This document shows, piece after piece, positions 7,861 through 57,322 of a DNA stretch of 64,000 bases. The position numbers and the translations under genes were made by a program. Positions within the stretch are counted from its first letter, which is position 1. Each line of letters starts with the position of its first letter. The DNA is from a virus. The DNA lies in IMG/VR virus record IMGVR_UViG_3300015371_000002, positions 60,251 to 124,250 of that record, one strand, 5' to 3'. The notes under the pieces were generated by a model. The model made no database searches. It saw only the letters and a program-made list of their open reading frames with translations, and was not told the origin of the DNA.

Positions 7861-10221
7861 TCATACGTATTTGGCGTAGTCAATCCACTGCACGACGCCA
7901 GTGCGACGCTTGCGCCAATTGATCTCACGCTCTGCAAGAACCGCGGTCATATTTTCCTGCCACAGTGAGCGGTAAACAGTAGAGGCAGAGATCGGGCTAT
8001 CGGGCGCGCTATCGAACTGCAGCGAAGCCTGGTTGCTGCTGTCGATCGTCACGTTGCCGTCGTCGGCGAGCAGAATTTCGCCCGGCAAGATGAACGCGAT
8101 CATATAGCCATCCGTCGGCGAACCACCGGACGACGGCACGTTCGTGCTGGTGATGACGCGGAACCCGGCCAACGTGCCGCCACCGGCGGTGATGTCGGGG
8201 AACTCGCGTTGTCCAAGCGTATTCAGCATGAGGCTGAACGCGATCGCCTGGTTGACGTGCATGACCCACGTGCCGCCAGTCATGTCGAGATCCAGCGCTG
8301 CCATCGTGGTCAGCACCGTGCGGATGTTGGCGCGCGCGGCGTCGGCATCCGTGCCTGTTGCGGCAACAGCAGTAACGCCGTTGGTCAGTGACGCAGGCGA
8401 AGGACCGCCTGAACCCGTGCCGACGACCTTCGTGCTGTCGAGCAGGTCGGTGTCGAGCTTCTTGGCAATCGCTGCGACCATGTCCTGACGGATCATCGCT
8501 TCCAAACTTGGATTTGAGAACCGCAGGCTTTCGTTGGTGAATGCTACGAGCGCGGCAACCTTCGCGAAGGTCATCGTGATCGTATCAAACGCCGCGCTGC
8601 TCATGGGTTTAGACGATCCCTCGCCGACCCAATACGCTGTCGAACCGGATGACATCAATGGGACACGAATGTTAAATGGCACACGACGCATACCGCCAGC
8701 GAGCTTGTCGAGAATAGTCGCAGCACGAACCAGATCGATAAATTCACTGGCCATATACTGCAGCTGCACGAGGGGTGACGCCCACGTGGTATCGTAAGTG
8801 TTCGCCGGAGCGACTGCCGCCTTCAGCACCGTTGTGCCCTCGGCCGCAGCAAAGTTCAACACTTGTGCTACTTCCGGCGTGTCCTTCCATGCCTCACGCT
8901 GTGCGATCTGCACCGCCTGCTGCAAGTTGCCCTTCGACATCGCCTGTGCGGCAATGTAGCGAACGAACGCGGTGCCCTTCTCAAGCGGCGGACGCTTGAC
9001 CTGGACAACGGACGAAGTCTGGCGTGGCGCTAGCGACTGACCGGCATTGTAACCGATACGGTCGCCATCGACTGCTACCGCGGCCGAGATGTTCAGCTTC
9101 TCCTGCTCGCGTAGACGGGTCAGGTGCTTGTCAATCGACTTAATCTTGTCGTTCAGTTCGTCGTATTCGGTCTCCTGCTCCTCATCGAGCGTTGAGCCGT
9201 CTTCCGACGCCTTGCTCATCAGCTCGGACATCCGTGCTGCGTGTGCGGTTCGCGTCGATGCGTATGCGGCAATATCTTCCGCAATAGTTTTGGTTGCCAT
9301 TGGTGCCTCCCGGCTTGTCTGGCGGTTAACGGTCGCCGTGACGCCGGCGGGGTTCTGCTCAACACGCGGACTCTGCTTCTGGCCGGTCGCGGCCTGCAGC
9401 GCTTGCGTATCGAGGGATCTGATAAGCTGGATGGTGGCTTCCGATTGGGCTGGCACGGTCACGAGAGACAATTCATGCCAGTTCCATTCTTTAAACCGGA
9501 TGCCACCACCCTTAATCATCTCATATTGGTCTTTGATCGGCGTGAAACCGATGCTGACGCCTTTGACGAGTCCAGCGCGCACTGTCTGCCACGCCTCATC
9601 AACGCGATCCTTAAGTTTCCCGGGTTCCTCAACCTTGGCGATGCGTGCCTGGAACGAGATACCGCGGTCGGTCTTAGTTACGTGGGTAACCGTTCCGACC
9701 GGCTGGCTGTGCTGGTGCATCCATAGCAGCGGGATACTGACCGGCGTCGCGTATTTCGCACCCATGCTTTCCACGACGTCACCGACATGATCGACGGATG
9801 GCGTGGTAGCGATGCCGGAGATCATGCGTTCGCCTTCGTTGAGGCCCTTGACCTCCAGCGTTGTCGGCATCCATTTCATTTCGACCGGCGCGGAATGCAT
9901 CATCGGCGCGTCGGGCATCGATGGCTTGCTATCCATCCACGCCATCATGCAGGTTTCCTCGCTATCGCCGCCTTCGACGCATCTTTCCAAGAACGAAACC
10001 ATATCCTCCCCGCCACCGGGTGTGCAGCACGTCCCTGCCACATCGCGCTTTGGCGCCGGACCGTTCGCTGCGGACCCGTGATGTTCCCGCCAAAGATTCA
10101 GACATACGGCAATCCGTTGCCTGTTCGTAGCGAAATCATTATTGACCGTTGCATCGCCCATGCAGCGTGCCATCCACTGCTCGTTTGTCTCGCCTGATGG
10201 CTTAGGTTTTGGAAGCGGCAT
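7861..10221 (-). CDS. Prohead protease fused to HK97-type major capsid protein
   Basis: 786 residues. Residues 1-45 carry the ETNEQWMARCMGD...QRIAVC motif often found ahead of phage S78 proteases. Residues 120-290 are the prohead protease (MHQH at 168-171, KGVSIGF at 220-225 with the likely catalytic Ser). From about residue 308 (MATKTIAEDIAAYAS) an HK97-fold capsid begins, with a coiled-coil scaffold-like delta region and then the shell domain. The ATG at 10221 (GGAG upstream) is preferred over upstream in-frame codons. Fusion of protease and capsid in one frame is known but uncommon; an internal start is annotated separately. Confidence 0.92.
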   Translation of the reverse strand: MPLPKPKPSGETNEQWMARCMGDATVNNDFATNRQRIAVCLNLWREHHGSAANGPAPKRDVAGTCCTPGGGEDMVSFLERCVEGGDSEETCMMAWMDSKPSMPDAPMMHSAPVEMKWMPTTLEVKGLNEGERMISGIATTPSVDHVGDVVESMGAKYATPVSIPLLWMHQHSQPVGTVTHVTKTDRGISFQARIAKVEEPGKLKDRVDEAWQTVRAGLVKGVSIGFTPIKDQYEMIKGGGIRFKEWNWHELSLVTVPAQSEATIQLIRSLDTQALQAATGQKQSPRVEQNPAGVTATVNRQTSREAPMATKTIAEDIAAYASTRTAHAARMSELMSKASEDGSTLDEEQETEYDELNDKIKSIDKHLTRLREQEKLNISAAVAVDGDRIGYNAGQSLAPRQTSSVVQVKRPPLEKGTAFVRYIAAQAMSKGNLQQAVQIAQREAWKDTPEVAQVLNFAAAEGTTVLKAAVAPANTYDTTWASPLVQLQYMASEFIDLVRAATILDKLAGGMRRVPFNIRVPLMSSGSTAYWVGEGSSKPMSSAAFDTITMTFAKVAALVAFTNESLRFSNPSLEAMIRQDMVAAIAKKLDTDLLDSTKVVGTGSGGPSPASLTNGVTAVAATGTDADAARANIRTVLTTMAALDLDMTGGTWVMHVNQAIAFSLMLNTLGQREFPDITAGGGTLAGFRVITSTNVPSSGGSPTDGYMIAFILPGEILLADDGNVTIDSSNQASLQFDSAPDSPISASTVYRSLWQENMTAVLAEREINWRKRRTGVVQWIDYAKYV
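9298..9311 (-). promoter_or_regulatory. Strong internal ribosome site and ATG for the capsid part
   Basis: On the minus strand GGGAGG sits five bases before an in-frame ATG at 9300, exactly where the capsid domain begins. This is stronger than the site at the start of the whole frame. It predicts a second product, free capsid protein of about 479 residues (7861-9300), made in excess of the protease-capsid fusion. Confidence 0.65.
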
Positions 10222-10286
10222 AGCAGTGGTTCTCCAGGGCTTAGAGGCTTGACGGCTGAGCTTAGGGACTGGCATGCTTAGCGTTA

Positions 10287-11360
10287 ATGAACTCAACGCC
10301 TGACAACCAACGTGTCTGCATAAATTGCGGACGGCCCCACTTCCCCACCAGAAAGGGTAGGTGCAAGGCATGCGATTATTACTGGCACACCTACGGCATA
10401 GAACGACCGGAGGTTATATTTAAGTCTCCAGTAAAAGGGCATTTTGCTGACCGAGATGGTCGCTCATGCCCTAACTGTGGGGTCCTATTTAACCCGATTA
10501 AGTTCTATCGGCGCGAGGGAAAGTTCCTATTTGCGGGGCAGTTGCGCTACTGCACAAGAGAATGTGGAAACGCCTATCGACTACGTCAAGCGAAGGGAAA
10601 ACCAAGCAAACTGCGCGGAAAGCGACTGGTCAAGGAACCCACAAGCGGGTTTGCATGTCGTGGGTGCGGCATTCTATGGACGCCGATCTATTATCGGCGG
10701 GGGAGGCCGATCCGCTTACAGCGAAGGTTAGCAGCAAGAGCGTTATGCTCCGATGCCTGTCGGAAGATCATCCGCATACAATCAGAGCCTCAACGATTAG
10801 CTAGCGTTCCTAGGGGCCCTAAGCACCGTTTCTGGAAGGGCGGAGTTGGTGCCTTATACCGACGCGGACTGGGATGGGCCAAGAAGACCGAGACCGTTCG
10901 TAGAAAACAGAAATACAAGTGCGCAGAGTGCGGCAAGTCTGAGAGCGAACTTGGCAAGGTTCTTGATGTGCATCACAAGGTTCCCTTCCACAACTTCGCC
11001 ACTGCGCGTGATGCCAACGTCTTTTCTAATCTGGTAGGCTTGTGTCGATCGTGTCATGCAAAGGCTGACGCAGCCATTGTGTCACGGCAACTAAGCCTAG
11101 GTCTGGTTCTTGCTGGTCGCGAGTTTCGCCCGGGGAAGGCCCGAGGAGGGCGTTGCGCTTCGGCCAAACTGACCGAAGCCATGGTCATAGAGATGCGCCG
11201 CAGACGGGCTGATGGCGCTACTACAAGCTATCTAGCTAAGCTATTCGGTGTTTCCCCCTCTGTTTCCCAATATGCCTGCTCAGGCAAAACGTGGAAGCAT
11301 GTCGGCGGACCGCTAACTAGCGGTAGGACCTATGCTAAAGCCGTAAATCCCTCTGGATGA
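10287..11360 (+). CDS. HNH homing endonuclease with zinc ribbons
   Basis: 357 residues. Several CxxC pairs (residues 11/14, 61/64, 124/127) form N-terminal zinc ribbons. Residues 210-260 hold the HNH core: CAECG, then DVHHKVPFHN, then GLCRSCHAK, with paired cysteines and the HH metal-binding pair. The C-terminus (AKLTEAMVIEMRRRRADG...SYLAKLFGVSPSVSQYA) is a helix-turn-helix specificity domain typical of homing endonucleases. It is on the strand opposite the head genes and interrupts the terminase-capsid junction, consistent with insertion as a selfish element. Confidence 0.88.
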   Translation: MNSTPDNQRVCINCGRPHFPTRKGRCKACDYYWHTYGIERPEVIFKSPVKGHFADRDGRSCPNCGVLFNPIKFYRREGKFLFAGQLRYCTRECGNAYRLRQAKGKPSKLRGKRLVKEPTSGFACRGCGILWTPIYYRRGRPIRLQRRLAARALCSDACRKIIRIQSEPQRLASVPRGPKHRFWKGGVGALYRRGLGWAKKTETVRRKQKYKCAECGKSESELGKVLDVHHKVPFHNFATARDANVFSNLVGLCRSCHAKADAAIVSRQLSLGLVLAGREFRPGKARGGRCASAKLTEAMVIEMRRRRADGATTSYLAKLFGVSPSVSQYACSGKTWKHVGGPLTSGRTYAKAVNPSG

Positions 11361-47893: not shown

Positions 47894-48327
47894 GCTGGTA
47901 GCACCTCTCTCGCCCCCTGGTCAGGCCGTTGCGCAGCAGACTGGAGCAGCGAGCGTCGCCCGCAGCCACGCGAACAGAATGTGCTCCCGCTTAAGCTCAC
48001 GAACAGATTGCCGCATTGCGGACAGGTCGTGGGGTTCACCACCACCACCGTCTCCCTGGGCAACTTTCCGCTCTTGCCTTTGCGCCGTGGTTTGTCGAGA
48101 GTCACATCGTAGCAATACAATGTCGCGATCATTAGGTGCCAACGCATTTCCGCCGGACTGGCGAGCGTATCGTCTTTATTTGGTAGCGCGCACCACATGC
48201 GCGTAACGGTGTGCATCGGCATCAGCCCTGCGACCCTGTCGTAAATCTCCCCCAAGGTGGTTGGCTTATCTATGTGCTCGGTGAGATACCGGCGAAGTTC
48301 GATGCGCCATGCCGGCGGTTGCGCCAT
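47890..48327 (-). CDS. Protein with C-terminal zinc ribbon (145 aa)
   Basis: Residues 95-125 (TCPQCGNLFVSLSGSTFCSR followed by GCGRR) form a zinc ribbon. N-terminal half helical (RRYLTEHIDKPTTLGEIYDR). Overlaps the ParB-like gene end by about 57 bases. Confidence 0.6.
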   Translation of the reverse strand: MAQPPAWRIELRRYLTEHIDKPTTLGEIYDRVAGLMPMHTVTRMWCALPNKDDTLASPAEMRWHLMIATLYCYDVTLDKPRRKGKSGKLPRETVVVVNPTTCPQCGNLFVSLSGSTFCSRGCGRRSLLQSAAQRPDQGAREVLPA

Positions 48328-49316
48328 TCGTTGGCCCTCTCTTTTTCCTCGATCAGCTTGTCCACCTCAGCCATGACCTCGGCGATGACCGTGGCGGCGT
48401 CCTCCAGCATTTTGCGCTCGCCCTTCAATTCTTGCGCCGTGAACCCGCCGAGATAGAGTTTATCTGGCGATCCTGGATACGCCTTCACCATGCCACGAGG
48501 CCTGGACAGAAACGCCGTTCCCTTGGCCTTCGGTGTGCGGCTGCGCTTGCCGCGGTTCTCCGCCTCGATCTGCGCCATCTCCCGGTCACGCTCTTCAATG
48601 AGCTTCAGTGCTTGCCGCTCACTGGTCTTCTCCTTGAGCTCCTTGATCAGCGACGTTGCGGCGCTGGTGCGCAGATCAGGATAGCGAGCGATCAGTCTCA
48701 CCGCCTCGGTGAAGATGACGTCGTTGTTCAGGCCGAACAGCGGTTGTTTCAGAGCCTTGAACTTGTCGTGGGAGATCTCGGCACCCACGCCAAGACGCTG
48801 CGCGCGCTCGGCGACCTCATTCTCCCTGAGATGGTTGGCGACCGTCTGCGGCCTCAAGCCAAAGCGCACGGCCAGCTCGTTGACCGGGACATCCGGATAC
48901 AGCCGATGGATTTCGGCGATGTGGTTGAGCTTCTCCATCTGATCGGGCGCACGACCTTCGATGTTATTGATCGTGCGCAGCAATAGTTCCACGCGATACG
49001 GATCGGCGTCACGAACAACATAAGCATCTAGCGCGTCGATCTCCGCTTCCTTCGCGCCCTCGATGCGGTGACGACCGGTTATTAGCCGGCTAGGCTTATT
49101 GTCGCCGGCATCCAACACCACGATGGCGGGGAAGTCCGCTCCATCGATCATCGCCAACCCGTAACTCAATGCCCGATCCTTATCGAGCTTCTTATACAGC
49201 CGAGCAGGATTGGCGTCGGCCTCCTTCAGATCAATCGCCGCAAACTTGAGCTGCTTGACGAAGACATGGCCATAGCCGTTAGCCTTCAGGAAATTCTCGG
49301 TCTTCGGGTCCCTCAT
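48270..49316 (-). CDS. ParB-like nuclease-fold protein A
   Basis: 348 residues. ParB/Srx core with ITGRHRIEGAKEAEIDAL at about 79-96, then an HTH (VPVNELAVRFGLRPQTVANH) near 143-162 and a long basic helical tail. ATG at 49316 with AAGGA upstream. Could regulate partition, replication or gene expression. No ParA gene adjoins it. Confidence 0.75.
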   Translation of the reverse strand: MRDPKTENFLKANGYGHVFVKQLKFAAIDLKEADANPARLYKKLDKDRALSYGLAMIDGADFPAIVVLDAGDNKPSRLITGRHRIEGAKEAEIDALDAYVVRDADPYRVELLLRTINNIEGRAPDQMEKLNHIAEIHRLYPDVPVNELAVRFGLRPQTVANHLRENEVAERAQRLGVGAEISHDKFKALKQPLFGLNNDVIFTEAVRLIARYPDLRTSAATSLIKELKEKTSERQALKLIEERDREMAQIEAENRGKRSRTPKAKGTAFLSRPRGMVKAYPGSPDKLYLGGFTAQELKGERKMLEDAATVIAEVMAEVDKLIEEKERANEWRNRRHGASNFAGISPST

Positions 49317-49335
49317 ACACGTTCCTTCCCGCGGG

Positions 49336-49932
49336 TCACGCCCGCATGTGCCCCTTCTGCAGTGCCGTATCGATGTCGGCGTCAAGGAACTTGGCGAGAT
49401 GGTCCATCATGCCCACCAGCTTGCCAAGCTCGATCTTAGAGTTCGGCTTCTGCCCAGTGCGAGTCTCTTCGGTGCGACACCAGAAGTCGACGCTATGGTT
49501 CTGGAACAGGATAACCGCCGCCATGCGCTGTTGTTGCTCGCGCAGCGACGCCCAGATGCGTTTGAATTCGTCGATGGCGCGACACTGCGAATGCGACGCC
49601 TTGCTAAAATCGAGTCGGGGCCCATAGACCAGCGCGTTCACCGGCATGCCGTCACGCGGTGCGCTGAAGCCGATGCGGGCGACGTCGGCGCGGGTGCGCA
49701 GATAGTCGGCGGCGTGAACGTGCTCTTCCTTGATCTCACGGCTAACGCGCTGCAATCGGCGCAGCATGCACATCGTCCAATAGCCACGGATGACACGGGC
49801 GGTGCGCTGGTTGGGACGGATGTCGTCTGGGTCTATCCATTCACCGCTATCAATTTGGTTTTCGCCCCCGTCTTTGCTGCGGCGGCGGACGGCTTGCGGT
49901 GGGTCCTGGTATTCAGTCGCTCGCTGCGCCAT
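49336..49932 (-). CDS. Hypothetical protein (198 aa)
   Basis: Begins MAQRATEYQDPPQAVRRRSK; central region YWTMCMLRRLQRVSREIKEE, then EFKRIWASLREQQQRMAAV, largely helical. ATG at 49932 preferred over upstream codons, which lie inside the previous gene. Unknown family. Confidence 0.55.
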   Translation of the reverse strand: MAQRATEYQDPPQAVRRRSKDGGENQIDSGEWIDPDDIRPNQRTARVIRGYWTMCMLRRLQRVSREIKEEHVHAADYLRTRADVARIGFSAPRDGMPVNALVYGPRLDFSKASHSQCRAIDEFKRIWASLREQQQRMAAVILFQNHSVDFWCRTEETRTGQKPNSKIELGKLVGMMDHLAKFLDADIDTALQKGHMRA

Positions 49933-50284: not shown

Positions 50285-50505
50285 GCCGCCTTCCCTTCCT
50301 GCACCGACGCCTCGAACCACGCGCGGTGCTCTCGGCAGGTCCATGCCTGCTCCTTACAGAACGGCGGGCCATAGCCGAACGATGGATGGACAGTGCAGCC
50401 GGGATGGGCGCACCTGCGTGCATCGTATTCGCGCACCCATGCTTGCTTGGTGGGTTTTTTCTTCTGGTCGTCGGGCTGACCGAACAGATCAGGTATCTCA
50501 ACCAT
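50281..50505 (-). CDS. Zinc-binding-like protein (74 aa)
   Basis: RCAHPGCTVHPSFGYG...FCKEQAWTCREHRAWFE: C-x4-C...C...C-x2-H set. Coupled to the primase-helicase gene (stop/start within the same base run). Confidence 0.6.
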   Translation of the reverse strand: MVEIPDLFGQPDDQKKKPTKQAWVREYDARRCAHPGCTVHPSFGYGPPFCKEQAWTCREHRAWFEASVQEGKAA

Positions 50506-52304
50506 CAGTCAGTCACCCAGCTTGGTGGCGGTGGAATCGGTTCCGCGTCAGATGGGTCGCGATAGCGGTTGGACGCTGACTCGAAATCCATGATCGCCCG
50601 CCGCCCGCGCGCCGACCAGCGCTTGGACTTAGATTTCCAAACGTATAGTCCAACGGCGCCATCTTTTTCGTGGTGCACGGTGATCCCAAGGTCGCTCTTG
50701 TTTGCCCAGTGCTGGCTTCCCGAGATTGAATATCCGACCGGCACCATGTAATCGCCCCGATCCTTTGACGGCGCCGGCTTTGCCGGATGCGCTATGACCC
50801 ACACATTGCAGCCATACCGCTGCGCGAACGAGCGAAACCGTTGCAATGCTTTGCCGATGAAGTCCGTCTCCGGCGTATCGCCACGCTGTTGGTCTATCTC
50901 GTTCCACGGATCTACCATCAGATCGGTAACGCCATAACGAACGACCGTAGCAGCAGCCCGTTCGAGCACCCAGTCCATGGTGGGCGCTTCGTCCTCAGCA
51001 TCGCATACCATCATTGTCACACGCCCGTTAAGCCAATCACCCGCATGAGCGATTTCCGCATCGCTCATTGTGTCCATGCCTGGGACGCTCCAGAACGGCT
51101 TGCCCGAGTAGACCTCCGCACATTCAGCAGCAAAATATTCCCACGGTTGATGTTCTGGGGAGAACACGGCCCAAACACGATCATGGCGTCTAATCGTGTG
51201 GATCATGACGAACCGCGCCCAGCTGGTTTTGCCGTGACCCGCATATCCGGTGACGATGATTAGCCTACCGTCTCCGGGGAATTTGAGAATTTCATCGGTC
51301 GCACGGATGCCTGTCGTTAGCACAGGAGGGGGTGGTCTGTTACGCAAAGCGAGCAGCGGTTGCGGCCCGATTTCGTAAATGCCTTTGATCGGGTAGGGCA
51401 GCGCGCCGGCAATTGTCGCAACAAGCGCGTCAACCCCATCGCGGATTAATGTGTCACAGGCATCCTTGCAACCATCCGGCCACGTCGCAAGAAAGCACCG
51501 GTGCCGTCCGAGCCGCCGCGCCAATTCCTCGCGAAGCGCTAAACCGGGCGCGTCAGTGTCGCCGGCCAACACGATCCGTTTTGCCTTGACCAGCAGGTCC
51601 GCATGCGTGCGTAGGGCGGCGAAGCGTTTATCGTTTGGGTTGGCTGTATCGGAAACTGTGATGCCTGCGCCGTCCTTGAGCGTTACCGCGTTCGTCAGCC
51701 CGCACTCGTGCAGCGCCATGACATCCGGCTCACCCTCGACCCAGATGATTTCCTTCGGTTCATCACCGACAGCATCAACGTTGAACAACGTCGGCAGCGC
51801 GTTTGCTTCCTGCATCTGCGGCTGCTTGTCTGGGTCCGGACGATACTTCCGATTTACGACATCGCCCTTGAGCCGATATGGAAAGACGATGGCTGGCCGC
51901 TTACCAAGACCCTGGAAATTCCTGGTGACGGAATAACAGCCGAAATAGTCCACCGTCCGCGCGCCGATATGCCGATCGGCGAAGAAGCGATACATCCACT
52001 CAGGCTTTTCGCTGTCGTCCTGTGGCGCTGGCTTGCGTGGCGGCGCCTGCGGTTCATCCCATTTGGTATGCCGCTCGCGCTCCTCTCCGCGGACACGCTC
52101 CCCGGCCGTCCACTGACATTTCCCGCGCCAGCACTTCACGACGACGCCTAGCCCGTCGTCATCGATTTTCACCTGCAGGCTCTTTTCCCGCGTGCGCCCG
52201 CCATCGCAGCGTGGGCAGACAACCTCCTCCTGCGCTCCCGGGCGCATCGACCGCAGGTTGCGGATGCCGAAGTTGTCCAGAATTCCCGCGACGCTGTCGG
52301 CCAT
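50505..52304 (-). CDS. Primase-helicase (T7 gp4/Twinkle type)
   Basis: 599 residues. N-terminal zinc ribbon (Cys 30, 33, 58, 63), TOPRIM primase with EGEPDVMAL (190-198) and AGDTDAPG (247-254), and a RecA-like DnaB-class helicase with Walker A GYAGHGKTSW (353-362) and a Walker B-like DLMVDPWNE. Makes primers and unwinds DNA at the fork. ATG at 52304 overlaps the initiator stop (TGATG), so the two are coupled, as in lambda O-P. Confidence 0.9.
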   Translation of the reverse strand: MADSVAGILDNFGIRNLRSMRPGAQEEVVCPRCDGGRTREKSLQVKIDDDGLGVVVKCWRGKCQWTAGERVRGEERERHTKWDEPQAPPRKPAPQDDSEKPEWMYRFFADRHIGARTVDYFGCYSVTRNFQGLGKRPAIVFPYRLKGDVVNRKYRPDPDKQPQMQEANALPTLFNVDAVGDEPKEIIWVEGEPDVMALHECGLTNAVTLKDGAGITVSDTANPNDKRFAALRTHADLLVKAKRIVLAGDTDAPGLALREELARRLGRHRCFLATWPDGCKDACDTLIRDGVDALVATIAGALPYPIKGIYEIGPQPLLALRNRPPPPVLTTGIRATDEILKFPGDGRLIIVTGYAGHGKTSWARFVMIHTIRRHDRVWAVFSPEHQPWEYFAAECAEVYSGKPFWSVPGMDTMSDAEIAHAGDWLNGRVTMMVCDAEDEAPTMDWVLERAAATVVRYGVTDLMVDPWNEIDQQRGDTPETDFIGKALQRFRSFAQRYGCNVWVIAHPAKPAPSKDRGDYMVPVGYSISGSQHWANKSDLGITVHHEKDGAVGLYVWKSKSKRWSARGRRAIMDFESASNRYRDPSDAEPIPPPPSWVTD

Positions 52305-53095
52305 CACGGGCACCACGACGGCACGGGCTGGCGATACGGCGACGCCGGCCGCGCGGGAGGTTTATCTTGCTCGCTGCGTTGGTCACGATAACGGACGTAA
52401 TTCAGACACCAAGTGCGCCAGGAAGCTCCCCAGTCTGCGCTGTCGGTTCCGTTGGCCTGATGGTAGGCCACGAAGCGCGCTATTTCTGCGAGCGGGACGC
52501 CCCGTTCGGTGGCGAAGGCGCTTGCCTTTCCGTCCGCGGACCAGTCCTCCGGGATCGTCGTTCTGCTGCGTGGCTTCGGAGTAGCCTTTTGGCGCTTCGG
52601 TTTCCCGCGCGCGCGATAAGACTCCAAACTATGAATATTAGATTCTGGTTCTTTCCTTGGTTCATTGGATAGATTCCCTCCCTGATTTGGGAGGGGGGGG
52701 GATCCATTTTTGGTAGCCCCCCCTTCCGTATTTGGTATCCCCACCTCTTCCGTTTTTGGTATCCCCTCCCCTTCCATATTCGGTAGGGGGACCCCTTCCG
52801 CATTTGGTAGGGGGGTATCTCCGATTTTGAGACGATACTCAGCGCTGAGGTGGGGCTTGCTGGCATCATCGCCAGGCCGCAGACACCGCTCGGTGAGACC
52901 TGAAGCGCAGAGAGCCGAGAGGGCCTTGCGGACCGTCTTTGGATTGAGATGCGTTCGGCGGCAGATTGTCTGGATAGAGGGGAAGGCGCGTTCGCCCTCT
53001 TTATTGGCATACCAAGCAAGACAGACTAACACCAGCTTGGCGGCACTCGTGGGGCATTCCTGCTCCCACGCCCAAGACTGTGCGCTGAAGCTCAT
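52304..53095 (-). CDS. Replication initiator with internal iterons
   Basis: 263 residues. N-terminal winged helix of the HTH_36 type (CPTSAAKLVLVCLAWYANKE, FPSIQTICRRTHLNPKTVRK). The middle is a series of 8-residue repeats (PLPNAEGV, PLPNMEGE, GIPKTEEV, GIPNTEGG) encoded by 24-bp DNA repeats. The C-terminal third (ERGVPLAEIARFVAYHQANG...WRTWCLNYV) resembles helicase-loading domains. Layout strongly matches phage initiators such as lambda O, with the origin inside the gene and the helicase next. Confidence 0.8.
   Translation of the reverse strand: MSFSAQSWAWEQECPTSAAKLVLVCLAWYANKEGERAFPSIQTICRRTHLNPKTVRKALSALCASGLTERCLRPGDDASKPHLSAEYRLKIGDTPLPNAEGVPLPNMEGEGIPKTEEVGIPNTEGGATKNGSPPLPNQGGNLSNEPRKEPESNIHSLESYRARGKPKRQKATPKPRSRTTIPEDWSADGKASAFATERGVPLAEIARFVAYHQANGTDSADWGASWRTWCLNYVRYRDQRSEQDKPPARPASPYRQPVPSWCP
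52702..52831. repeat. 24-bp iterons, predicted replication origin
   Basis: TTCC units begin at 52724, 52748, 52772 and 52796, exactly 24 bases apart, with consensus TTCCGTATTTGGTA followed by a C- or G-run; partial units begin at 52702 and 52819. An A+T-rich stretch (52621-52680) flanks them. Iterons in an initiator gene followed by an AT-rich region is the classic lambdoid origin arrangement. Confidence 0.85.
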
Positions 53096-53235
53096 GGCGT
53101 GGCATCCACGCCGCGCCATTGCACGACGTTGGCAGCCTGCACCCATAGGAATGCTGCCCAGCGGGCTTCAAGCCGAGAATGATAGCGGCGACCGCGATAG
53201 ACGGTCGGGATAGCCGCTATCCAGTAGCCGCTCAT
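53092..53235 (-). CDS. Small conserved phage protein (YRSRLEARWA type, 47 aa)
   Basis: MSGYWIAAIPTVYRGRRYHS followed by RLEARWAAFLWV; this RxYxSRLEARWA signature recurs in phage and plasmid accessory proteins of unknown role. Overlaps both neighbours by four bases; lies in the replication operon. Confidence 0.65.
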   Translation of the reverse strand: MSGYWIAAIPTVYRGRRYHSRLEARWAAFLWVQAANVVQWRGVDATP

Positions 53236-53591
53236 GCGTCGACTCCGGGTTCGGTTGTGGGAAGGCCGCTGCGCACGGGCGGATCCAGCAGATGAAAGCG
53301 GCTGACCCCGTGGGCGACCGGCTCGGCGCGGACCAGATGCTTCTGCTCCAGCGACTCGATCGCGCGGTAGACATTGGCGCGTTGGCCGCTGCGGCTGATG
53401 TGGTCGGCGATGGCCTGGATGGTCAGCCGGCAGCTATTGCCGTCGGCCCGTCCGACGAGGACCGCATAGACCAGTTGCTGGAAAGTGCTGAGATCTGGCG
53501 TGGCGAGCGCCGCCATGACCCGGCTGGTGCCCGTGGGCGCCTCGCCGATACCACCCCTAGTGCCTGTCGCGAAAGAATCATCAAATATCAC
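53232..53591 (-). CDS. Winged-helix protein, first gene of the replication operon
   Basis: 119 residues. PDLSTFQQLVYAVLVGRADG, then LTIQAIADHISRSGQRANVYR and AIESLEQKHLVRAEP form a MarR-like winged helix. GTG start at 53591 with AAGG upstream. Directly downstream of the dyad operators at 53611-53670, so it is a good candidate for autoregulation. Confidence 0.65.
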   Translation of the reverse strand: MIFDDSFATGTRGGIGEAPTGTSRVMAALATPDLSTFQQLVYAVLVGRADGNSCRLTIQAIADHISRSGQRANVYRAIESLEQKHLVRAEPVAHGVSRFHLLDPPVRSGLPTTEPGVDA

Positions 53592-55281: not shown

Positions 55282-56247
55282 ATGGTTCAGTTCACTATTG
55301 ATCTGGCCTCAACGTCATCGGCTGCCTTCGGCAACCTCATCGAGCAGTTCGAGAAATGGAAGCAGGACTCTCCGCCTGCACCGTTTGGCCTGACGACGGG
55401 TATCCATACGATTACCCCTGAGCAGGCCGAGGAGCTGCTGAAGCGCAATCGGAAGAACCGTTCAGTTGATATGAGGACGGTTCAAAACTATGCCGTCCAA
55501 CTGATGCGGCAAGAGTGGAAGATTACTGGACAGCCCGTGATCTTTACTGAGCAGGGCAACCTCTTGGACGGGCAGCACCGTTTGTGGGCTTGCTATCTGA
55601 GCGGAGTGCCGATCACCACATATGTGGTAACCGGCATCCCCGATCAGGATAACCTGTTCGCCTACGTCGACAATTGTCGGCCACGCTCGGCCGGCGATGC
55701 TTTGCAGACTGCTGGGTTGAATGGCCTCGCCAAGCACGTGGCGGCAGTCATTCAGGAGTTCGCTCATCGCTATGATGAAGGAGCGCTCGGCGTATCTGGC
55801 CGTGTCTTCGGTATGACGTTGTCCAACCGCGAAGTGCTTGGTTACATGCAGGACCATCCTGACCTGATGGATGTCGCCCGCTATGTAGACAAGATGCACA
55901 AGCAGGCGAAGGCCAAGTTGGGCGCCTCGATCACTACGTTCCTGGCATGGAAGATCGAACAGCTCTATGGCCGGGAGACTGTCGATGAGTTCTTTCACTC
56001 ACTCATCGCAGTTGATTTGCCTAACGACCATCCGGTCACGATGCTGCGCAAGTATATCGAACCGCCGACCCTGACGCCGAAACAGCGGCAGGCAGGCATT
56101 ACCGCGAAGCAACCTCCGGCAAAGACCCGGCTGGCCATGGCCATCGCTGCCTTTAATGCGGTGCAGTCTGGTCAGCGCCTTAAGAAGCTGCAGATCGACC
56201 CGATGAATTCTTACGTCATCAATGAGCCGGTTGCGCAGGCAGCCTAA
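55282..56247 (+). CDS. ParB-like protein B
   Basis: 321 residues. ITPEQAEELLKRNRKNRSVD, NLLDGQHRLWACYLSGVPI (93-111), RPRSAGDAL: a ParB/Srx-fold phage protein family. AGGAG upstream. Likely DNA-binding regulator; no enzyme role assigned. Confidence 0.75.
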   Translation: MVQFTIDLASTSSAAFGNLIEQFEKWKQDSPPAPFGLTTGIHTITPEQAEELLKRNRKNRSVDMRTVQNYAVQLMRQEWKITGQPVIFTEQGNLLDGQHRLWACYLSGVPITTYVVTGIPDQDNLFAYVDNCRPRSAGDALQTAGLNGLAKHVAAVIQEFAHRYDEGALGVSGRVFGMTLSNREVLGYMQDHPDLMDVARYVDKMHKQAKAKLGASITTFLAWKIEQLYGRETVDEFFHSLIAVDLPNDHPVTMLRKYIEPPTLTPKQRQAGITAKQPPAKTRLAMAIAAFNAVQSGQRLKKLQIDPMNSYVINEPVAQAA

Positions 56248-56296
56248 CGGATGGGGGCGGCGGAGACGCCGCCCTTCATTCTCTGGAGCACGTGTC

Positions 56297-57322
56297 ATGA
56301 GATACGAACTACACCCGGCCTGCGCTGCGTTCCCGCCGATGTCTGATAAGGAACTGAGGAAGCTTGCCGAGGACATTAGATTCAATGGTCTGATGGAGCC
56401 CATCACACTGCTTGATGGCAAGGTGCTCGATGGACGCAATCGCATGCTGGCGTGCGAAATGGTGGCCATGGAGCCGGATACCCAGGACTTCAATGAGAAG
56501 TTCCGTGGCTTCGATCCGATCCGGTTCGTGCTGGCGAAGAATGAACGCCGACGGCATCTGCCGGCTAACGAACGCGCGATGATTGCTGAGACGCTGGCCG
56601 CAATAGCTAAGGGCCAGAAAAAGTCAGATAGAGTAATTACTCTATCTGAGGCTCTGACGCAGGAAGAGGCCGCAGAAGAGATGGGCGTAAGCGTGCAGGC
56701 AATCAAAGATGCACGCACAGTTAAGAAGAACGCCGCTCCGAATGTCATCGACATGGTGCGTAAGGGCGATGTCGGTATGCAGGTTGCTGCCCGTGCCGCG
56801 TCAGCCACACCATTGCAAGAACAGGCGAAGTGGAAGTCGCCGAAGGATGTGCGCGCCGCATTCGAAGCACAGCGGCCAACTAACCGGAGACCATCCACGG
56901 ATCAGAAGGCACCAAGGAGAAACACCCGACAAGAGGCATGGGAGCGGAGGATTAATCGCCCTGCATTCCGATCGCTTCCACCGGAAGAAACAGGCAAGCC
57001 GGTGGGCCTAGAGGCGTTAGAACCAGACCCGGATAACCCTACCGTCACCATTGGGTTCTCGCATATTGCCAAACACGGAATGGTGCAAATCCTACCGATC
57101 ACAGAACAGCAGCGCATGGACTTTCGCGCGAAACTCTATGATCTGACGGGCGCAATGAAGGACCTCGCCAACAAGGAGTGTGCGACCGCAGAGGAGTTTG
57201 TGACGCTTCTGACAGAAAAGGAGCGGGCGCCATTCTTACGCCAATGGTCGGACTACATCAGCAAGATCGAGCAAACGATTCAGACATTGAGCGGGCTGAT
57301 TGAACGTGAGAAAGCAGCATAA
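56297..57322 (+). CDS. ParB-like protein C with HTH
   Basis: 341 residues. ParB core KLAEDIRFNGLMEPITLLDG and DGRNRMLACEM (45-55), an HTH (QEEAAEEMGVSVQAIKDAR) near 126-145, and a basic linker before the helical C-terminus. Second of two tandem ParB-like genes. ATG at 56297 with GGAG upstream. Confidence 0.75.
   Translation: MRYELHPACAAFPPMSDKELRKLAEDIRFNGLMEPITLLDGKVLDGRNRMLACEMVAMEPDTQDFNEKFRGFDPIRFVLAKNERRRHLPANERAMIAETLAAIAKGQKKSDRVITLSEALTQEEAAEEMGVSVQAIKDARTVKKNAAPNVIDMVRKGDVGMQVAARAASATPLQEQAKWKSPKDVRAAFEAQRPTNRRPSTDQKAPRRNTRQEAWERRINRPAFRSLPPEETGKPVGLEALEPDPDNPTVTIGFSHIAKHGMVQILPITEQQRMDFRAKLYDLTGAMKDLANKECATAEEFVTLLTEKERAPFLRQWSDYISKIEQTIQTLSGLIEREKAA

What the first reader, a model, noticed from the sequence alone, without database searches (positions are those of the whole stretch)
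52621..52831. Iterons inside the initiator gene predict the replication origin
Four exact 24-bp spaced TTCCG...TTTGGTA units plus two partial units lie inside the initiator gene, encoding eight-residue repeats in its protein, and are flanked by an AT-rich segment. This is the lambda O/ori arrangement in a non-lambdoid genome.
Basis: partly seen in the sequence, partly recalled or inferred. Interest (0 to 1): 0.85.

Follow-up and report, generated by a model that had tools for sequence, protein, structure and literature searches.

The report
Phage replication origin inside initiator gene
A 124-kb phage carries its probable DNA-replication start site inside the gene for the protein that starts replication, an arrangement known from phage lambda and SPP1; comparing about 145 related genes suggests that the protein's DNA-reading helix predicts the sequence of these sites, so many phage origins could be located from sequence alone.

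Summary
Six units, not four plus two partial, share the core CCRAAWNNGG on the minus strand (52681-52807; spacings 24, 24, 24, 22, 23 bp), inside a 263-aa winged-helix initiator gene (HTH_36; PHROG 1032). Unit 5 lies in another codon frame, in the window and in an 85%-identical relative that has lost exactly one 24-bp unit, so selection acts on the DNA. The adjoining AT-rich stretch (about 52615-52679) is the least stable 50-bp segment of the whole 124-kb record. The overlapping next gene encodes a primase-helicase. Lambda O run as a control shows the same layout.

Across 73 non-redundant relatives, 64 have such repeats mid-gene (control ORFs 10/130), most often 22 bp apart. Repeat sequence follows the winged helix, not the C-domain. 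Three helix classes defined on one set predicted the repeat core in 33 of 36 new genes (0/20000 permutations). This supports binding of the initiator to these repeats; binding and origin activity themselves are untested.

Kind: an O/ori-like origin, known from lambda, Stx phages and SPP1; a new member, not a lambda O homologue by sequence. The helix-to-iteron code appears new, judging from the papers I could search.

The parts
52304..53095 (-). Initiator gene, 263 aa: winged-helix N-domain (residues 1-90), disordered linker (about 91-175), C-domain (178-243) weakly like DnaT. An earlier ATG at 53146 is possible.
   Evidence: HTH_36 PF13730 7.3e-12; phrog_1032 replication initiation protein 1.3e-30; AlphaFold2 with 63 relatives, pLDDT above 90 in most of both domains and about 50 in the linker
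52798..52807 (-). Iteron 1 core CCAAATGCGG
52774..52783 (-). Iteron 2 core CCGAATATGG (24 bp on)
52750..52759 (-). Iteron 3 core CCAAAAACGG (24 bp on); in the alignment with relative L002 this is the 24-bp unit that is absent there
52726..52735 (-). Iteron 4 core CCAAATACGG (24 bp on)
52704..52713 (-). Iteron 5 core CCAAAAATGG (22 bp on), in a different codon frame from the others
52681..52690 (-). Iteron 6 core CCAAATCAGG (23 bp on), within the dyad CCCTCCC-AAATCA-GGGAGGG
   Evidence: dyad
52615..52679 (.). AT-rich probable DNA-unwinding element, directly 3' of the iterons in the sense of the gene
   Evidence: least stable 50-bp window of the 124-kb record at 52626-52675
50505..52316 (-). Primase-helicase gene (603 aa), overlapping the end of the initiator gene: TOPRIM plus RecA/DnaB-like ATPase
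   Evidence: phrog_239 1.6e-74; Toprim_4 1.7e-7; AAA_25 4.5e-7; order kept in L002

Best explanation
This is a theta-type replication origin embedded in its own initiator gene. The N-terminal winged helix of the initiator binds the six CCRAAWNNGG iterons, probably as dimers (inferred), and forms an O-some-like complex. The complex melts the adjoining AT-rich element at 52615-52679 (inferred). The DnaT-like C-domain then holds single strand and/or recruits the helicase, most likely the phage's own primase-helicase encoded by the overlapping next gene (inferred). The origin is tolerated in the gene because the iterons encode a disordered linker between two folded domains (predicted). Transcription through the gene may also activate the origin, as in lambda (inferred). 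Shown by sequence: repeats under DNA-level constraint, extreme duplex weakness beside them, initiator family, gene order, and matching of helix class to iteron core.
For: Family: PF13730 and phrog_1032. DNA-level repeats: 0/2000 synonymous shuffles; unit 5 out of frame in the window and L002; L002 lacks exactly one 24-bp unit. Family-wide: 64/73 relatives with repeat pairs vs 10/130 control ORFs, 111/121 pairs at 0.3-0.6 of gene length, modal spacing 22 bp, 47/73 genes with a spacing not a multiple of three. AT-rich element: weakest 50 bp of the record; in relatives the weakest 40 bp falls at the iteron end in 34/62 genes vs 9.8 expected. Lambda O control: repeats at 0.39-0.44 of the gene and weakest 40 bp starting 3 bp after iteron 4. 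Initiator-iteron match: repeat similarity follows the winged helix (Mantel 0/1000), not the C-domain (359/1000); helix class predicts core in 33/36 new genes, 0/20000 permutations; same-class pairs at 20-30% non-helix identity share the core 45/45, different-class pairs 0/411. Helicase gene: phrog_239 1.6e-74.
Against: No binding or origin assay. No GC-skew turning point at the site: the cumulative minimum is at record position 75038, the iterons are near 113000, and the skew is shallow and noisy. The dyad is clear only in units 1, 2 and 6. The helix-iteron match is partly shared ancestry, since the iterons lie next to the winged-helix codons: most QY members form one clade. The KT class was tested on new members fetched with Bcep176-like queries, not with the window protein itself.
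Confidence: 0.86

Rival explanations
1. The repeats are operators: the initiator binds them to repress or tune its own transcription, and the origin lies elsewhere.
For: Winged-helix proteins with operator arrays are common and the PDB fold matches are mostly transcription regulators. No skew signature at the site.
Against: Mid-gene position, about 290 bp inside the coding region, is unusual for an operator. The record's weakest duplex lies directly beside the array. The same layout is the proven origin in lambda and SPP1 (PMC7466680, PMC6316719).
Confidence: 0.07
2. The repeats are a protein feature: an eight-residue linker repeat kept for spacing or flexibility, with DNA similarity as a by-product.
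For: Four units are exactly eight codons and encode similar octapeptides.
Against: Units 5 and 6 break the octapeptide, and unit 5 is out of frame while keeping the DNA core. Synonymous shuffles never reach the DNA repeat (0/2000). The modal spacing in relatives is 22 bp.
Confidence: 0.02
3. A minisatellite made by replication slippage, with no function.
For: Exact loss of one 24-bp unit in L002.
Against: Same position and similar spacing with different sequences in dozens of relatives, and sequences predictable from the helix class.
Confidence: 0.02

Closest known systems
Phage lambda and Stx-phage O protein with ori within gene O (PMC7466680)
   Same: Iterons in mid-gene at roughly 20-24 bp spacing, AT-rich tract directly 3' of them, extra units added or lost in different phages, helicase-recruiting gene next
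   Different: No sequence relation found to lambda O (PF04492 not matched; hhalign probability 1.4%); the next gene is a primase-helicase, not a P-type loader; other iteron sequence
Bacillus phage SPP1 gp38 with oriL within gene 38 (PMC6316719)
   Same: Non-lambdoid phage, direct repeats and AT-rich element inside the origin-binding protein's gene
   Different: SPP1 has a second origin, a separate loader (gp39) and DnaB-type helicase (gp40); sequence not compared (record not held)
HTH_36 / phrog_1032 'replication initiation protein' family (Klebsiella ST13-OXA48phi12.5, Burkholderia Bcep176, Pseudomonas and Salmonella phages)
   Same: Same domain order, mid-gene repeats; Bcep176 shares helix class and core; Salmonella S107 and SI8 also have a primase/helicase next
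   Different: 25-34% protein identity; repeat sequence differs between helix classes
Pseudomonas phage MD8 O-like gp56 (PMC8508860)
   Same: Authors report repeats within the O-like gene
   Different: Followed by a P-like protein, no primase-helicase

Membership tests
HTH_36 phage replication initiators (phrog_1032) | Winged-helix N-domain matching PF13730 above its cut-off | tested here: met
   45.4 bits, cut-off 25
HTH_36 phage replication initiators (phrog_1032) | Full-length match to the PHROG | tested here: met
   1.3e-30, residues 18-249 of the 280-aa ORF against 1-251 of 281
HTH_36 phage replication initiators (phrog_1032) | DnaT-like C-domain | tested here: inconclusive
   PF17948 14.5 bits, cut-off 25; profile against DnaT structures E about 0.04
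Lambda O (Phage_rep_O, PF04492) | Sequence match to PF04492 | tested here: not met
   lambda O matches at 5.7e-36, this protein not at E<=1; hhalign 1.4%
O/ori-like origin (functional kind) | Array of direct repeats within the initiator gene | tested here: met
   six CCRAAWNNGG cores
O/ori-like origin (functional kind) | AT-rich unwinding element beside the repeats | tested here: met
   weakest 50 bp of the record
O/ori-like origin (functional kind) | Each repeat an imperfect inverted repeat | tested here: inconclusive
   strong in units 1, 2, 6; weak in 3-5
O/ori-like origin (functional kind) | Initiator binds the repeats and replication starts there | not testable with these tools
   only indirect: helix-class and core co-variation
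Lambda O-P system | P-type helicase loader gene directly downstream | tested here: not met
   next gene is a primase-helicase, phrog_239

The most novel reading that the evidence does not exclude
In this widespread initiator family a few residues of the recognition helix dictate the iteron that the same gene carries: VQY with GGGTGCA, VQR with GGGTGACA, VQK with GGGGTGAAC/CCCCGAAC, [ND]xKTV (this window) with CCRAAWNNGG. Protein and origin, one DNA segment, would co-evolve under this code, so origins could be read from protein sequence.
Probability: 0.65. Interest if true: 0.65.

Novelty: new member of a known kind. Interest (0 to 1): 0.52.

Why it matters
It places the likely origin of an uncultured 124-kb phage to within about 200 bp. 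More broadly, the helix-to-iteron match gives a testable rule for finding origins in a large family of phage genomes annotated only as 'helix-turn-helix protein', and a way to ask how an initiator and its binding sites change together when both are encoded by the same stretch of DNA.

Tried and rejected
GC skew of the whole record: shallow, no turning point at the site. Single-sequence AlphaFold2 model: pLDDT 51, not used. Scan of genome contigs with the protein: no relative. SPP1 record for a direct comparison: not held. Promoter scan: no sigma-70-like site found, uninformative for this host. Foldseek: winged-helix matches only, no E<=0.001. One KT alignment was too divergent to scan with, so a narrower one was used. 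First pattern for the KT class (CCRAAAN2-3GG) missed some window units; CCRAAWNNGG replaced it after seeing them, and the KT count in the new genes stayed 10/11. The QK rule was read off the new genes themselves and is post hoc. The NCBIfam library named none of the eight genes tried. By the coverage statistic alone the window is not extreme against synonymous shuffles (8/200), because its octapeptide repeat is kept by the shuffle; the consensus-copy test is the sharper one.

Full report
Setting. The window is the last 64,000 bases of a 124,250-bp virus record. No phage record matches 42-64 kb of it at the DNA level. It has portal, terminase and a fused protease/major-head gene. The region in question is a minus-strand run: winged-helix initiator (53095-52304), then a primase-helicase (52316-50505) whose start overlaps the initiator's end.

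The repeats. All six units, including the two called partial, share CCRAAWNNGG on the coding strand: 52798-52807, 52774-52783, 52750-52759, 52726-52735, 52704-52713, 52681-52690. The 14-bp form has 6 matches in 64 kb against 0.45 expected, five of them here. In the other 60 kb of the record there is one further isolated match. The 10-bp core alone is not rare (15 in the window against 10 expected); it is the cluster of six that is unusual.

DNA or protein? Units 1-4 encode octapeptides, so a protein repeat had to be excluded. Permuting synonymous codons within the gene, which keeps the protein, never gives four exact copies (0/2000). Unit 5 keeps the core although it is read in another frame. 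The only close relative found, L002 (85% identity), keeps unit 5 out of frame, keeps unit 6, and has one 24-bp unit fewer.

AT-rich element. By nearest-neighbour energies the 50 bp at 52626-52675 are the least stable of the entire record; the stretch also ranks first at 30, 60 and 70 bp and second at 40, 80 and 100 bp. It begins where the iterons end. Lambda O, put through the same scripts, shows repeats at 0.39-0.44 of the gene and its weakest 40 bp starting 3 bp after iteron 4.

Protein. PF13730 (7.3e-12) and phrog_1032 (1.3e-30) make it a phage replication initiator. A model from 63 relatives has two confident domains, 1-90 and 178-243, and a disordered linker; the iterons encode part of that linker, so the origin costs little protein structure. 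A profile of the family finds the DnaD N-domain (4e-5) and, weakly, DnaT (0.04) in the PDB. It is not a lambda O homologue by sequence.

Family-wide test. Seventy-three non-redundant relatives from phage records and IMG/VR were scored for 16-bp direct repeats 17-28 bp apart. Sixty-four have at least one pair against 10 of 130 neighbouring ORFs (2.12 against 0.22 pairs per kb); 111 of 121 pairs lie at 0.3-0.6 of the gene; 22 bp is the commonest spacing and 47 genes have a spacing that is not a multiple of three. Against synonymous shuffles, 35 of 73 are individually significant at 2/200 or better. The weakest 40 bp of the gene lies at the iteron end in 34 of 62 genes, 9.8 expected.

Does the protein read these repeats? 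Between relatives, repeat similarity follows winged-helix similarity (rho 0.22, helix 0.26; Mantel 0/1000) and not C-domain similarity (0.02; 359/1000) (first version). Reading the list, I proposed three rules: xxRxVQY with GGGTGCA, VQR with GGGTGACA, and [ND]xKTV (the window's class) with a CC-AAA-GG core (note). New loci were then fetched by protein sequence only and thinned to 72 genes whose winged helices are at most about 80% identical to the first set or each other. Result: 16/16, 7/9 and 10/11 carry at least two copies of the predicted core and none carries two copies of another class's core; 33/36 in all, 0/20000 label permutations. With the rest of the winged helix only 20-30% identical, same-class pairs share the core in 45/45 cases and different-class pairs in 0/411. 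That comparison counts only genes that have one of the three cores. VQR with GGGTGACA appears in several parts of the tree, while VQY is largely one clade, so shared descent explains part but probably not all of it; many forks of that tree are unresolved. A fourth rule, VQK with a GAAC core (6/6), was read off these same genes and is post hoc.

How it works. By analogy with lambda and SPP1: initiator binds iterons, AT-rich DNA melts, helicase is loaded. Here the likely helicase is the fused primase-helicase next door, so no P-type loader may be needed. Binding, melting and loading are inferred, not shown.

Known or new. Origins inside initiator genes are established for lambda and Stx phages (PMC7466680) and for SPP1, which is not lambdoid (PMC6316719); repeats in an O-like gene were also reported for phage MD8 (PMC8508860). 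This locus is therefore a new member of a known kind. The helix-class-to-iteron rule was not met in the papers I could search, which exclude most subscription journals.

Noticed in passing
53232-53591 (-): Short 119-aa winged-helix protein just upstream of the initiator, weakly like phrog_270 replication initiation proteins (1.6e-4); perhaps a regulator or a detached DNA-binding domain.
   Followed up: partly
48270-49385 (-), 55282-56247 (+), 56222-57322 (+): Three genes with ParB-like PHROG matches (weak for the middle one, 0.0023) flank the origin region, which would fit plasmid-like maintenance of a prophage.
   Followed up: no
7861-10371 (-): One 836-aa ORF matches both head-maturation protease and major head protein families, a fused protease-capsid gene.
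   Followed up: no
53181-53221: Inverted repeat with 17-nt arms (82% complementary) upstream of the initiator gene, between it and the small winged-helix gene.
   Followed up: no
L216 and L239: Sister initiators (support 98/94) with VQK-type and IQT-type helices carry different iteron cores (GAAC type and GGGTGCA), a candidate recent switch of specificity.
   Followed up: partly
L073: Exception to the VQR rule: helix GERTVQRHL but iterons of CCCCCGCC type, similar to its sister L077 (VQQ, CCCCCGCA).
   Followed up: no
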